Position numbers and translations under genes: made by a program
The notes under the pieces: generated by a model
What the model was told of the DNA's origin: nothing
Database searches by the model: none
What the model saw: the letters and a program-made list of their open reading frames with translations, nothing else
Assembly (NCBI RefSeq): GCF_947039425.1
Contig: NZ_CAMQYW010000004.1
Span: forward strand, 1-38,391
Direction: 5' to 3'
Length of the DNA: 38,391 nucleotides
From: an uncultured Cetobacterium sp.
GTDB lineage: Bacteria > Fusobacteriota > Fusobacteriia > Fusobacteriales > Fusobacteriaceae
Shown: in pieces, positions 4,579 through 11,042 of the stretch
How the letters are laid out: each line of letters opens with the position of its first letter
How positions within the stretch are numbered: the first letter of the stretch is position 1

Positions 4579-5379
4579 ATGAAAGGAGTCATCATTTACA
4601 ACGAAGGGAAAGAGTTTGCAAAAAAATTAAATGATGAGTATTTGATTTTTTTTAAAGAAAAGAATATAGAGATAGTTCCAAAGTCAAAAATAAAAGAAGC
4701 TACATTTATTATTATAATAGGTGGAGATGGAACTTTATTAAGAGCTTCTAAAAGTATAATAAAAAATAATGAAGCAATAGATGTATTTGCTGTAAATGCA
4801 GGATCTCTTGGGTTTTTAACAGAGATCAAAGCAGAAGAATTTAAAGAAACTTTTGAAAATTATTTAGAGGGAAGGTATCAAAGAGAACCAAGATCTCTAT
4901 TACAATTAAAATCTAGAGGTGAAGTTATATATATTCTAAATGAAGTTGTAATATCAAAAGCAGCAGCAGTTTCTAGGATTTTAAATATTTCAGCAAGAAC
5001 AAATAAAAGTACAATTTGTAATTACAAAGCAGATGGATTAATAATAGCAACACCAACAGGATCAACAGCTTATTCTTTATCTGCTGGAGGCCCAATAGTG
5101 ATGCCAGGTTTAAAGGTAATAATAATAACACCTTTAGCACCACATAATTTAACTACAAGACCAATAATTATAAATGGAGATGAAAAGTTAATACTATCTT
5201 TAAGAGAAAAAGAGAAAGGTTGCATAATAATTGATGGAGAGATTAAAAGAGAACTTAGAGAACAGGAGATTATTTCAATTTGTTACTCAGATAAAAGATT
5301 GAATTTAATTCTCCCAGAAGGTAGAGATTATTATGGAGTACTGAGAGATAAGTTAAAATGGGGAGATAGTTTATGCTAA
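4579..5379 (+). CDS. nadK: NAD kinase
   Basis: GGDGTLLRA, NAGSLGFLTE, TPTGSTAYSLSAGGPIV. Confidence 0.95.
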   Translation: MKGVIIYNEGKEFAKKLNDEYLIFFKEKNIEIVPKSKIKEATFIIIIGGDGTLLRASKSIIKNNEAIDVFAVNAGSLGFLTEIKAEEFKETFENYLEGRYQREPRSLLQLKSRGEVIYILNEVVISKAAAVSRILNISARTNKSTICNYKADGLIIATPTGSTAYSLSAGGPIVMPGLKVIIITPLAPHNLTTRPIIINGDEKLILSLREKEKGCIIIDGEIKRELREQEIISICYSDKRLNLILPEGRDYYGVLRDKLKWGDSLC

Positions 5380-7034
5380 AAGAGTTAAAAATTGAAAATT
5401 TAGCTATTATAGAAAAAGTTGATCTTGAGTTTGATAATGGATTGATAGTTTTAACAGGAGAAACAGGAGCAGGAAAATCTATTATTTTAAGTGGAATAAA
5501 TCTTTTAATTGGAGAAAAAGCTAGTTCTGATATGGTGAGAGATGGAGAGGATCATCTATTGGCTCAAGGTGTATTTGGAGTTAATGAGGAGCAAGAGCAA
5601 GAATTAAAAGAGTTAGGAATAGAAGCTGAAGATCAGGAAGTAATAGTTAGAAGACATATTGATAAGAGCGGAAGAGGAAAAGCCTTTGTAAATAATATAA
5701 GAGTTCCAATGTCTAGTTTAAAGGAGATTATGGGGACTCTTGTGGATATTGTAGGTCAACACTCTCATCAAATGTTACTAAATAAAAATAATCATTTAAG
5801 ATTATTAGATAGATTTTTAGGAGAAAAGGGTCTAGAGATTAAAAAGGAATTAGAAGTACTTTTTAGTAAATATTCTAGTTTAGATAGAAGAATACAAGAT
5901 GTTGAAAAAAATAAGAAAGAAACAATGGAGAAAAAAGAGTTTTATGAATATCAACTTCTTGAAATTGATAAAATAAGTTTGAAAGAAAATGAAGATGAAA
6001 AATTAGAGGAAGAGTATAAAAAACTTTTCAATGCAGGGAAAATTAAGGAAAAGTTATCAATGTCAGAATCTTTACTTCGTGATGGAGAACTTAACGCTTT
6101 AACTATAATATCTAATAGTAAAAAAAATCTAGAGATTGTTTCTAAATATGGAAAAGAGTTTCAAGATATTTTAGAAAAATTAGAAAGAGTATATTATGAT
6201 TTACAAGATTGTGTAGATTATATGAGTGATTTAAATAGTGGTATTGAAGGGGATGACATTAGATTAGATAAAGTAATATCAAGACTTGATAATATAAATA
6301 GATTAAAATCAAAATATGGAGATGAAATTTCAGATATCTTAGAATATAGAAATAATATTGAAGAAAAATTACAACTTTTAGATGAAAATAGTTTCCAAAT
6401 AAAAAAACTTTTAAAAGAAAGAGAGATAGCAAAAAAATTATATTTTGAAAAAGCTGAAAAGTTAACTTCAATAAGACTTGAAAAAGCTAGTCTTATTGAG
6501 ACAAACTTAAAAGATGAACTTAAGGGATTAAATATGGGAGATGCTCAGTTTAAAATTAAGTTTGAAGAAGCGCAAAACATGGGAATAACTGGAGTAGATC
6601 AAGTGGAATTTATGATATCAACAAATATTGGACAATCTTTAAAACCTTTATGGAAAGTAGCTTCAGGTGGTGAAGTTAGTAGAATAATGTTAGCTATAAA
6701 AGTTATTTTTTCAAAAGTTGATAATATTCCAATTTTAATATTTGATGAGATTGATACAGGAGTTGGTGGAGAAACAGTTAGAAAAATTGCAGATAAATTA
6801 CAAGAAATTGGAAAAACAACTCAAGTTATGAGTATAACTCACTCTCCAGCAATAGCTTCTAAAGCTTCTCAGCAATTTTATATAGAAAAAAAATTAATTG
6901 AAAATAAAACTGTAACTCAGGTAAAAAAATTAACTGATCAAGAAAGAGTTCAAGAGATTGCAAGAATGCTAGGTGGAAAAAATATTTCTCAAGCAGTACT
7001 AAAGCATGCAAAGGAACTTTTAAGTGAGGGATAG
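5373..7034 (+). CDS. recN: DNA repair protein RecN
   Basis: LKELKIENLAIIEKVDLEF, GETGAGKSIIL, VASGGEVSRIMLAIK, IFDEIDTGVGGETV. Confidence 0.95.
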   Translation: MLKELKIENLAIIEKVDLEFDNGLIVLTGETGAGKSIILSGINLLIGEKASSDMVRDGEDHLLAQGVFGVNEEQEQELKELGIEAEDQEVIVRRHIDKSGRGKAFVNNIRVPMSSLKEIMGTLVDIVGQHSHQMLLNKNNHLRLLDRFLGEKGLEIKKELEVLFSKYSSLDRRIQDVEKNKKETMEKKEFYEYQLLEIDKISLKENEDEKLEEEYKKLFNAGKIKEKLSMSESLLRDGELNALTIISNSKKNLEIVSKYGKEFQDILEKLERVYYDLQDCVDYMSDLNSGIEGDDIRLDKVISRLDNINRLKSKYGDEISDILEYRNNIEEKLQLLDENSFQIKKLLKEREIAKKLYFEKAEKLTSIRLEKASLIETNLKDELKGLNMGDAQFKIKFEEAQNMGITGVDQVEFMISTNIGQSLKPLWKVASGGEVSRIMLAIKVIFSKVDNIPILIFDEIDTGVGGETVRKIADKLQEIGKTTQVMSITHSPAIASKASQQFYIEKKLIENKTVTQVKKLTDQERVQEIARMLGGKNISQAVLKHAKELLSEG

Positions 7035-7826
7035 ATGGATTTATTAAAAGAATTTTTAGAGTATAAATTAGAATCAAAAGATATAAAAAAAGAAACATTA
7101 GATATATATCAATGGGATATAGGAGATTTTAAGAATTTTATTGAAAAAGATTTATTAAAAGTGTCCAAAGAGGATGTGATAAACTATATAAAATTTTTAA
7201 AAGATAAATATCAAGCAAATACAATATCTAGAAAGATAAGTACAATAAAAGGATTTTATAAATTTTTATTTAAAAAAAATATGGTTGAATCCTTGCCGAC
7301 AGATGGAATAATTTTAGAAAAAGCTTCTGAAAAAAAAATAGAAGAGTTAGAAGAGTGGGAAATAGAAGCTATTTTAAATAGTTGTGAAAAGGATGAAAAA
7401 GGAGAGAGAGATAAAATATTAATAAAATTATTAATAGAAACAAAACTCTCAATTAATGATATTTTGAAATTGAAAGTATCAGATTTGAAACTATATTCAT
7501 ATTGTGGTGTTTTAAATTTGGACGGTCTTGGAATGATAAAATTATCAGATGAGTTATCAGATGAGTTAAAATATTATATTTTAACTATTAGAGATGAGAA
7601 AAATGAAAATCACAGTGACATCTTATTTTACAAGGTTTCTAGACAGTCTTTTAGAGCAAGATTTATAACTCTTGGAAAGAAAGCTCATATAAAAAGAGGG
7701 ATTTCTCCAAATATGTTGAGAAATACTTTAAAAAGTGTGGTAAAATTAGAACATGATAGAGAAGAAAGTGTTTCAAATTTAAAAACGAAAGAGAAATACT
7801 TTAAAATAGGAATAGGAGATGAGTGA
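7035..7826 (+). CDS. Tyrosine recombinase (XerC/D-fold) homologue, degenerate active site
   Basis: N-terminal SAM-like domain (LVEF..YK.ES....TLDIYQWDIGDFKNFIE...ISRKISTIKGFYKFLFKKNMV) and C-terminal region alignable to catalytic domain, but box I Arg and both box II His positions are replaced. Confidence 0.8.
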   Translation: MDLLKEFLEYKLESKDIKKETLDIYQWDIGDFKNFIEKDLLKVSKEDVINYIKFLKDKYQANTISRKISTIKGFYKFLFKKNMVESLPTDGIILEKASEKKIEELEEWEIEAILNSCEKDEKGERDKILIKLLIETKLSINDILKLKVSDLKLYSYCGVLNLDGLGMIKLSDELSDELKYYILTIRDEKNENHSDILFYKVSRQSFRARFITLGKKAHIKRGISPNMLRNTLKSVVKLEHDREESVSNLKTKEKYFKIGIGDE

Positions 7827-7829
7827 CAA

Positions 7830-8723
7830 GTGAAAGCTGGATTCATAGCAGTAGTAGGAAGACCAAATGTTGGAAAATCTACTCTAATAAATAAACTCGT
7901 AGACGAGAAGGTTGCAATAGTTTCTGATAAAGCAGGAACAACAAGAGATACAATAAAAGGAATTTTAAATTTTAATGGTAATCAATATATTTTTGTAGAT
8001 ACACCAGGAATCCATAAGCCAAAACATTTACTTGGAGAGCATATGACTAATAGTGCTTTAAGAGTATTAAGAGATGTAGATGTTATAGCTATGGTTATTG
8101 ATGCTTCTCAAGAGATAAGTACAGGAGATTTATTTGTTCTTGAAAAAATAAAATTAGCTCATAAAATTCCTAAAATATTAATTTTAAACAAAATAGATAA
8201 AATTAATGATGAGGAATTAGAAGCTAAAAGAGAAGAGATTAAAGAGAAATTAGGAGAATTTAGTGCTGTTGTTGAAATAGCAGGGCAATATGCAATAGGA
8301 TTACCAAAATTATTAACAGCGTTAGATCCCTTTTTAGAAGACGGAATAAAATTCTATCCAGATGACATGTATACAGATATGCCTATGTACAGAATAATAA
8401 CAGAAGTTGTTAGAGAGAAAATACTTGAAAGAACAAGAGATGAGATACCTCACTCAGTTGCTATTGAGATAATAAATGTAACTAGAAGAAATAATGGAAA
8501 AGATAAGTTTGACATTAATATATACGTTGAAAGAGACTCTCAAAAAGGTATTATCATAGGGAAACAAGGTAAAATGTTAAAAGATATTGGAACTGAAGCT
8601 AGAAAAGAGATTGAAAAACTTTTAGGAGTTGAAATCTATATGGAACTTTGGGTAAAAGTTAAAGATGACTGGAGAAAGAAAAAACCATTCCTTAAAGAAC
8701 TTGGTTATGTAGATGAAAAATAA
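7830..8723 (+). CDS. era: GTPase Era
   Basis: GTG start; GRPNVGKSTLINKL, DTPGIHKPKHLLGE, NKID, C-terminal KH domain GIIIGKQGKMLKDIG. Confidence 0.97.
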   Translation: MKAGFIAVVGRPNVGKSTLINKLVDEKVAIVSDKAGTTRDTIKGILNFNGNQYIFVDTPGIHKPKHLLGEHMTNSALRVLRDVDVIAMVIDASQEISTGDLFVLEKIKLAHKIPKILILNKIDKINDEELEAKREEIKEKLGEFSAVVEIAGQYAIGLPKLLTALDPFLEDGIKFYPDDMYTDMPMYRIITEVVREKILERTRDEIPHSVAIEIINVTRRNNGKDKFDINIYVERDSQKGIIIGKQGKMLKDIGTEARKEIEKLLGVEIYMELWVKVKDDWRKKKPFLKELGYVDEK

Positions 8724-9353: not shown

Positions 9354-11042
9354 ATGCTTGATTATTTTGAATCAGAAAATGGAGTTGAAGCATTTAAAAA
9401 AGCACTAAGGAAAAATAAGCTAAACTTCTTTTATAGAAAAGATAAAAATATAAAGGTATTTAAAGATATAGAGAGAGAAGGAGAGTTTTCAACAAAAATA
9501 TATTTAGGAATAAGGGAGATTTCTTTGGAGAAAATTGTTGGAACAGTTGAAAAAGGTGGGGACTTTGATAGAAATTTCAACCCTAAAAGAGACTCATCCA
9601 AGAATAGATGGGTCAATGTATATAATGAGCTTGTAGTAAGAGGAACAGCACCACCAATTGTTCTTTATAAGGTGAGAGATGAGTATTATGTCTATGATGG
9701 AAACCATAGAGTTTCTGTTGCCAAAAATCTTTCTTTTACATCTTTAGAAGCAGAAGTATATGAATTTTTCTCATCTAAAAATGATATCTTAGATAAATTA
9801 AGTAGAGAGAGATTTGCTTTTGAACTTGAAACAAAATTGAAAAAAATAGATGTTAGCTTACCTGAAAGCTATTTGCTTTTAAGAGAAGAAATTAAAAATT
9901 TTAGCGATCTTTTTTATGATGAAGAGGAAAGTTATTTGGAAAAATGTGATAATTGGTATAGAAGAATATTTACACCTATTGTTAACATAATAACTAGAAA
10001 TATTCTTGAATTTGAATATAGTAAAAACGGCGACATTTTTTTAGAATATTTAAAATATAAAAAAGAATCAAAATATCAAGATAGATATACAAGATCTCTT
10101 GTAAACTATTTAAATATAAAAAAAAGAGATGAAATTTCTAATCTAAAAATAGATATAGTTGTAGATAATATTATAATTGGAGATTTTAGAAAAATATATG
10201 ATTTTGATAGATTGAGTTTATTTAATAATGAAACTAGAGATAAAATTTTAGCAATAAGAGAGTTTAGTAAAAAAAGATTTAGAAGAGAGAGTTTAATTTT
10301 AGGAGAGATATCTTTATATGGAAAAGTAAATAAGATTCATGGATTTACAGTGGCTATGCAACTTTGGTTTGAAAATGTATATGAAGTTTATCAAAAAGAA
10401 TGGAATATAAAGATTGACTCAATGGGGTTAGTTAAGAAATTTGAAAATTCAGATAAAATAATAGAGGACGCTATGAGATTCTCAAGATATTATAGAGAAC
10501 GTTCAGGAAGATTATTATCTTATTTAGAGATACTGTATAATTATATGTTAGATATATATATACCTAGTATATTGATTTTAGAGGAAAATTCAATAGATAA
10601 AGAGGATATAGAAGATGAGTATCTGAAAATAACTCAAAGCTATTTGTATTATAGAAGATATGGAGGAGAAGATTCTCTTAAAGCGTTTGTAGAAGGATAT
10701 TTATTAGAAAGTTATGGGAGTAAAATAACTGATTTTATTTTTTCTAAAAATAAAAAATTTGATGCAGATGTAACTAAAGATCTTTTAGAATTTACCACGT
10801 TAGAAAAATATGGTGGAACAGAGAGCTATAAAACTATAAAAAAATTAAAAGAGTACATAAAAAGCTTAGATATTGAAAATAAAGAATTAATAGATTTAAA
10901 GCTTGATAATGATTTTAAAGCTTTTGCAAATCAAGAGGATATTATTTTAGATTATAACAATAAGAGAGTTTTTAATTTAATTAGAGGAATTTGGGGTAGT
11001 TATACATTTGTAGATTATTGTAGCGACTTATTAAAAAGATAG
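9354..11042 (+). CDS. ParB/Srx-like N-terminal domain protein with long uncharacterised C-terminus
   Basis: REISLEKIVGTVEKGGDFDRNFNPK...NRWVNV...APPIVLYKVRDEYYVYDGNHRVSVAKNL. Confidence 0.7.
   Translation: MLDYFESENGVEAFKKALRKNKLNFFYRKDKNIKVFKDIEREGEFSTKIYLGIREISLEKIVGTVEKGGDFDRNFNPKRDSSKNRWVNVYNELVVRGTAPPIVLYKVRDEYYVYDGNHRVSVAKNLSFTSLEAEVYEFFSSKNDILDKLSRERFAFELETKLKKIDVSLPESYLLLREEIKNFSDLFYDEEESYLEKCDNWYRRIFTPIVNIITRNILEFEYSKNGDIFLEYLKYKKESKYQDRYTRSLVNYLNIKKRDEISNLKIDIVVDNIIIGDFRKIYDFDRLSLFNNETRDKILAIREFSKKRFRRESLILGEISLYGKVNKIHGFTVAMQLWFENVYEVYQKEWNIKIDSMGLVKKFENSDKIIEDAMRFSRYYRERSGRLLSYLEILYNYMLDIYIPSILILEENSIDKEDIEDEYLKITQSYLYYRRYGGEDSLKAFVEGYLLESYGSKITDFIFSKNKKFDADVTKDLLEFTTLEKYGGTESYKTIKKLKEYIKSLDIENKELIDLKLDNDFKAFANQEDIILDYNNKRVFNLIRGIWGSYTFVDYCSDLLKR

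What the first reader, a model, noticed from the sequence alone, without database searches (positions are those of the whole stretch)
7035..7826. Tyrosine-recombinase-fold protein with dismantled active site, embedded between recN and era
Seen: the N-terminal SAM-like DNA-binding domain is well kept, but box I (canonical TGLRVSEL) reads TKLSINDIL with Arg to Ser; the beta-hairpin GKGxKER Lys region reads DGLGMIKLS; box II HxLRH reads NMLRN with both His to Asn; the LGH motif is not recognisable. Only the box II Arg and perhaps a Tyr (KEKYF) remain. The frame is fully open and tightly packed (starts 1 nt after the recN stop, ends 4 nt before the era start), which argues against a decaying pseudogene. 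Inference: a catalytically dead Xer relative repurposed as a DNA-binding or architectural factor, possibly working with RecN or a genuine XerC/D.
Basis: partly seen in the sequence, partly recalled or inferred. Interest (0 to 1): 0.72.

Follow-up and report, generated by a model that had tools for sequence, protein, structure and literature searches.

The report
Dead XerD kept after recombinase swap
The gene is the ancestral chromosome-separating enzyme XerD with its cutting site destroyed, kept as a conserved protein in a whole bacterial family that has also lost FtsK and seems to have handed dimer resolution to a different recombinase with its own target site at the replication terminus.

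Summary
Confirmed: the ORF at 7035-7826 is a tyrosine-recombinase-fold protein between recN and era with no usable active site. It is the XerD orthologue. Sister families carry an intact XerD directly after recN; in the window's family (Fusobacteriaceae; genus Cetobacterium) the dead form occurs in all 14 genera. All 57 copies lack the box I Arg and the LGH His, yet dN/dS is about 0.11, so it is not a pseudogene.

The cause looks like a system swap. No chromosomal FtsK was found in 61 family genomes (37/37 sisters have it), XerC is also decaying, and a third, intact recombinase ('XerF', my label) is in 55/61 family genomes and 0/37 sisters. About 75-520 nt after xerF lies a 28-bp 11+6+11 inverted repeat; its core is usually single-copy, and GC skew changes sign at it in four genomes, as expected of dif.

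Why the dead XerD is kept is inferred: probably a catalysis-independent DNA-binding role, with SMC unloading at the terminus (as for B. subtilis XerD) as the leading guess. No wet evidence.

The parts
5373..7034 (+). recN, upstream neighbour; the nadK-recN-xerD order is ancestral in the phylum
   Evidence: TIGR00634 524.8 bits; sister loci nadK-recN-XerD
7035..7826 (+). X: catalytically dead XerD orthologue, 263 aa
7044..7277 (+). N-terminal SAM-like core-binding domain (aa 4-81); R66 and K67 nearly invariant in X and in active sister XerD
   Evidence: Pfam PF02899 above cut-off; pLDDT mostly 82-94
7347..7730 (+). degenerate catalytic domain (Phage_integrase match, aa 105-232)
   Evidence: PF00589 46.1 bits; Foldseek hits
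7449..7451 (+). box I Arg position, here Ser139 (Arg in 0/57 orthologues, 16/17 sister XerD)
7710..7724 (+). box II: N226 M L R229 N230 in place of H-x-x-R-H
7785..7823 (+). conserved XerD C-terminal tail TKEKYFKIGIGDE (Y..I[GA]IGD), shared with active XerD of sister families
7830..8723 (+). era, downstream neighbour
   Evidence: NF000908 350.3 bits

Best explanation
X is XerD stripped of catalysis. In the ancestor of Fusobacteriaceae the FtsK-XerCD-dif dimer-resolution system appears to have been replaced by a single intact Xer-type recombinase ('XerF') acting at an 11+6+11 bp dif-like site beside its own gene at the replication terminus. FtsK was lost, XerD lost its active site, and XerC then began to lose its own. 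XerD was nevertheless kept under purifying selection. Most likely it performs a function XerD already had that needs no DNA cutting: it binds DNA through the SAM-like domain and contacts a partner through its conserved C-terminal tail. The leading candidate for that function is release of SMC complexes at the terminus, as reported for B. subtilis XerD. Shown by sequence: orthology, loss of active site, selection, loss of FtsK, presence and location of XerF and its site. Inferred: that XerF resolves dimers, and what X does.
For: Orthology: sister families have nadK-recN-XerD with intact residues and the same C-tail; the X clade is 100/100, next to sister XerD and apart from XerC. Selection: dN/dS 0.066-0.169 in 20 pairs from 8 genera. 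Tail Y..I.IG kept in 56/57 X, also where era is 540-1080 nt away or has its own Shine-Dalgarno. FtsK motor absent in 60/61 family genomes, the one hit being an SspH defence protein, versus 37/37 sisters positive; FtsK gamma likewise. XerF: 55/61 family genomes, 0/37 sisters, hexad intact 52/52. Site: exact core usually once per genome, next to xerF; GC skew flips at it in G024-G027; arm complementarity 60/90 against shuffled mean 39, maximum 57 in 10,000. ScpA of the SMC complex is kept (58/61). Terminus SMC unloading by XerD is reported for B. subtilis (cited in PMC12322038 and PMC8242196).
Against: No biochemical data. X evolves faster than recN and era, so a slow decline is possible. Leptotrichia-like relatives show XerD decay up to a frameshift (G077) although they keep FtsK, so XerD can be dispensable. 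No candidate X binding site was found, and nothing ties X to SMC beyond co-occurrence. No dif-like site was found by the core pattern in several genera (g6, g9, g10, g13, part of g8).
Confidence: 0.62

Rival explanations
1. X and the decaying XerC form a non-catalytic heteromer on an old dif-like site and act as a regulator or architectural complex; the X tail docks into XerC as in active Xer synapses.
For: Both genes are kept across the family; the X tail equals the XerD tail that follows the catalytic Tyr; the XerC box I Arg to Thr change is seen only in genera with the short X.
Against: XerC of this family lost its own C-terminal tail motif; the Arg to Thr and short-X changes map to one branch each, so the association is a single event.
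Confidence: 0.3
2. X is a slowly decaying relic, kept open mainly because recN and era are translationally coupled through it.
For: Tight packing; GGA-GAT at the end of the gene resembles a Shine-Dalgarno for era in many genera; faster evolution than its neighbours; frameshifted XerD in a Leptotrichia-like genome.
Against: dN/dS about 0.11 in all tested genera; the tail persists where era is distant or has its own Shine-Dalgarno (g7-g10, g13, g14); 14/14 genera retain the gene.
Confidence: 0.12
3. X is still an active recombinase with relocated catalytic residues.
For: Some long forms keep box II Arg and a Tyr at the old nucleophile position.
Against: Box I Arg and LGH His are 0/57; the LGH-to-Tyr segment is deleted in most; outside the tail almost no catalytic-type residue is invariant.
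Confidence: 0.02
4. X assists RecN or other double-strand-break repair as a DNA-binding cofactor.
For: Next to or near recN throughout the family.
Against: The recN-xerD order is ancestral and predates loss of catalysis, so adjacency says nothing special about X.
Confidence: 0.06

Closest known systems
XerD (TIGR02225)
   Same: Orthologous by synteny and tree; same two-domain fold; same C-terminal tail as XerD of sister Fusobacteriota families
   Different: Catalytic hexad destroyed; scores 99.9 bits against a cut-off of 329.6; family lacks its activator FtsK
B. subtilis XerD as SMC unloader (Karaboja et al. 2021, cited in PMC12322038 and PMC8242196)
   Same: A role for XerD at the terminus other than dimer resolution; ScpA of the SMC complex present here too
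   Different: B. subtilis XerD remains an active recombinase; SMC unloading by X is untested
XerS/difSL and XerH/difH single-recombinase modules (PMC5357621, PMC2731167)
   Same: Resemble the XerF module: one recombinase gene beside a dif-like site near the GC-skew switch, in place of XerCD
   Different: XerF is below the cut-off of XerS, XerA, XerC and XerD models; its site is in many genera a perfect 11+6+11 palindrome; degenerate XerC and XerD genes persist; FtsK is absent
Streptococcal XerD-like protein (PRK02436/NF002685), recalled, not tested
   Same: As recalled, a XerD relative not used for dif recombination in bacteria that use XerS
   Different: X scores only 31.7 bits against its cut-off of 178 and has a different gene neighbourhood

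Membership tests
XerD recombinase (TIGR02225) | Orthology: gene directly after recN, tree placement with XerD | tested here: met
XerD recombinase (TIGR02225) | Catalytic R-K-H-R-H-Y | tested here: not met
   box I Arg 0/57, LGH His 0/57
XerD recombinase (TIGR02225) | Equivalog score of at least 329.6 bits | tested here: not met
   99.9 bits. Intact sister XerDs also fall short, so the cut-off alone is not decisive in this phylum
XerD recombinase (TIGR02225) | FtsK gamma activator present | tested here: not met
XerD-type SMC unloader | SMC-ScpAB present | tested here: met
   ScpA in 58/61 family genomes; ScpB and SMC not searched separately
XerD-type SMC unloader | Sequence-specific binding at terminus sites that releases SMC | not testable with these tools
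   needs ChIP-seq and Hi-C
Single-recombinase Xer module (for XerF, not X) | Intact catalytic hexad, one gene per genome | tested here: met
   52/52 intact; one strong match per genome
Single-recombinase Xer module (for XerF, not X) | dif-like inverted repeat, intergenic, beside the gene, at the GC-skew switch | tested here: met
   clear in g1, g2, g4, g5, g11, weaker in g3, g7, g8, g12, g14; terminus position tested in four g4 genomes only, inconclusive in G037 (g6)
Single-recombinase Xer module (for XerF, not X) | Recombines its site | not testable with these tools
   needs a plasmid resolution assay
XerS (NF003462) or XerA (NF040815) | Curated score cut-off (267 or 220) | tested here: not met
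   XerF 79 and 120 bits

The most novel reading that the evidence does not exclude
An entire bacterial family has discarded FtsK and the XerCD/dif system, replaced it with a new kind of FtsK-independent single-recombinase/dif module, and kept the killed XerD as a dedicated chromosome-terminus DNA-binding protein, which would naturally separate XerD's non-catalytic role from recombination.
Probability: 0.35. Interest if true: 0.88.

Novelty: new variant of a known kind. Interest (0 to 1): 0.75.

Why it matters
XerCD and FtsK have been described as present in nearly all sequenced eubacteria (PMC5357621). A family with no detectable FtsK, dead XerD, decaying XerC and a separate recombinase with a dif-like site at the terminus would be a natural swap of chromosome-dimer resolution machinery. 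Persistence of the dead XerD under selection turns a standing question (what XerD does besides recombination) into a testable one in an organism where its recombination has already been removed. It also supplies a candidate dif site for Fusobacteriaceae; none was found in the held literature.

Tried and rejected
1) Genome-contig scan with X itself: no relatives; X evolves too fast for 8-residue patterns. 2) Scan for a canonical dif consensus over the phylum: matches about as frequent as in the reversed control, and most of the recurrent ones that I read lie in coding sequence; dropped. 3) Pseudogene: rejected by dN/dS and retention in 14 genera. 4) Tail conserved only as the Shine-Dalgarno of era: rejected, since it is kept where era is distant or has its own Shine-Dalgarno. 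5) Active residues elsewhere: no support. 6) XerF site as a plain transcription terminator: unlikely, because the asymmetric core is conserved in sequence and a separate terminator-like hairpin lies at +176 in the own genome. 8) First idea that X pairs with an intact XerC: dropped once XerC box I Arg was seen to be Thr in the window's lineage. 9) The one FtsK-domain hit in the family (G001) is an SspH-like defence gene.

Full report
THE OBSERVATION. The frame at 7035-7826 is open, 263 aa, directly abutting recN (stop 7032-7034) and ending 3 nt before the GTG of era. It matches Pfam SAM_1 and Phage_integrase above their cut-offs and is nearest to XerD among NCBIfam models, far below its cut-off (99.9 of 329.6 bits). 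The AlphaFold2 model (pLDDT 83, pTM 0.54) matches XerA, XerD, lambda Int and XerH in the PDB. One correction: Y255 (KEKYF) is not a relic of the nucleophile but part of a C-terminal tail.

ORTHOLOGUES IN THE FAMILY. Whole-genome searches found the gene with recN before it and era after it in all 14 genera of the window's family (57 loci of 61 genomes; a few loci are cut by contig ends, and g7 and g10 have extra DNA between the genes). The window belongs to Cetobacterium or very near it: the recombinase described below is 82-83% identical to that of named Cetobacterium MAGs, and Cetobacterium is in Fusobacteriaceae. No orthologue has the box I Arg, the LGH His or the last box II His (0/57). Two forms exist: a long form (278-290 aa; g7-g10, g13, g14) that keeps the region of LGH and Tyr in degraded shape, and a short form (237-270 aa; g1-g6, g11, g12) in which it is deleted.

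IT IS XerD. In sister families the gene directly after recN is an intact XerD (16/17 keep box I Arg, both box II residues, LGH His and Tyr). The tree puts X as one clade next to those XerDs, with the family's other Xer next to sister XerC. Most sister XerDs end in ..[KR].IY..I.[IL]GDD or close to it, the same tail as X.

SELECTION. dN/dS (Nei-Gojobori) is 0.066-0.169, median 0.113, in 20 pairs, against 0.032 for era and 0.047 for recN. This excludes neutral decay but shows weaker constraint than the neighbours. The best conserved residues are F198, Y255, I258, I260, G261, D262, R66, K67 and Y25, that is, mainly the tail and the DNA-binding domain. The tail survives where era has its own ribosome-binding site or lies 540-1080 nt away, so it is not merely the Shine-Dalgarno of era. 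In a parallel case, Leptotrichia-like genomes G073 and G075 have XerD reduced to the SAM domain joined in frame to this tail, G077 is frameshifted, and G068 has a point-mutated active site.

THE REST OF THE SYSTEM IS GONE TOO. The FtsK motor domain is found in 37/37 sister genomes and in 1/61 family genomes; that one is an SspH-like defence ATPase. The search scored only the top 26 candidates in many genomes, but the independent FtsK gamma search, which scored all candidates, agrees. One genome (G043) has a 375-aa gene with a weak gamma-like end and no motor, perhaps a remnant. XerC of the family keeps box II Arg, LGH and Tyr in most genomes, but its box I Arg is Thr in 21/21 sequences from short-X genera and Arg in 7/7 from long-X genera; g3, g6 and g11 copies have further losses. 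These changes sit on single branches, so they count as one association.

A REPLACEMENT RECOMBINASE. A third tyrosine recombinase of about 330 aa (here called XerF; own genome contig C219) occurs in 55/61 family genomes, all 14 genera, and in none of 37 sister genomes, where only XerC/D match at about 30%. The six genomes without a match include four below 90% completeness; the other two are 92-93% complete drafts. The hexad is intact in 52/52. It is below the cut-off of every NCBIfam Xer model.

A dif-LIKE SITE. Downstream of xerF lies ACTACATATAA-TTAACA-TTATATGTAGT in Cetobacterium, an 11+6+11 inverted repeat. Other genera have ACCAC..GTGGT, ACTGC..GCAGT or CAATC..GATTG arms around the same core. 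Over the phylum the exact core occurs once in nearly every genome of g1, g2, g4, g5 and g11, beside xerF (4.3 kb away in G001, on a separate contig in G035); the reversed control gave few matches, not split by mismatch in the table. Two sister genomes, G094 and G096, have the exact core with non-palindromic arms. Arm complementarity outside the searched core is 60/90 positions over 18 distinct sites, against a shuffled mean of 39 and a maximum of 57 in 10,000. In G024, G025, G026 and G027 the GC skew and gene orientation change sign across the site; in G026 the sampled whole-chromosome profile puts it opposite the origin. In G037 the profile is rearranged and inconclusive. These are the published hallmarks of dif in single-recombinase systems: near the skew switch, intergenic, low G+C, palindromic with a central hexanucleotide, near its recombinase gene (PMC2731167, PMC5357621).

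WHAT X DOES. Shown: dead, conserved, DNA-binding and tail residues kept, FtsK gone, another recombinase present. Inferred: X keeps a function of XerD that needs no cleavage. B. subtilis XerD unloads SMC at the terminus (Karaboja et al. 2021, cited in PMC12322038 and PMC8242196), and this family keeps ScpA (58/61). I put about 0.3 on SMC unloading specifically, 0.3 on a non-catalytic X-XerC complex (the two are compatible), and 0.12 on a relic. The orthology and loss-of-catalysis claims I hold at above 0.95, the recombinase swap at about 0.85.

NOVELTY. Single-recombinase Xer modules are known (XerS, XerH, XerA), so the swap is a new variant of a known kind. A universally retained, catalytically dead XerD in a family without FtsK was not found in the literature held here, which lacks most subscription journals.

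Noticed in passing
G000:C219:227-1222 (-) and C219:118-135 (locus L133): Intact third tyrosine recombinase (XerF, my label) in the own genome with a 28-bp dif-like inverted repeat 86 nt after its stop; outside the window but central to the explanation.
   Followed up: yes
L155 (G075), L157 (G073), L156 (G077), L117 (G068): Independent XerD decay in Leptotrichia-like genomes that keep FtsK: catalytic domain deleted with SAM domain and tail joined in frame, a frameshift, and a point-mutated active site.
   Followed up: partly
L131:2523-3647 (G043): 375-aa protein with hydrophobic N-terminus and a weak FtsK-gamma-like end (28-31 bits) but no motor domain, upstream of an MreB-like gene; possible FtsK remnant.
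   Followed up: partly
L132:2-9934 (G001): Genes resembling SspG, SspH and weakly SspC (phosphorothioate-type defence); SspH is the only FtsK-domain protein found in the family.
   Followed up: partly
PDB entry 9i5v chain 14: A 401-aa chain named RaiA that matches the X profile over the full recombinase length (1.4e-27) and XerF (1.4e-14): a recombinase-RaiA fusion or a mislabelled chain.
   Followed up: no
window 9354-11042 (+): 562-aa ORF two genes downstream of era with no Pfam or NCBIfam match at E up to 1.
   Followed up: no
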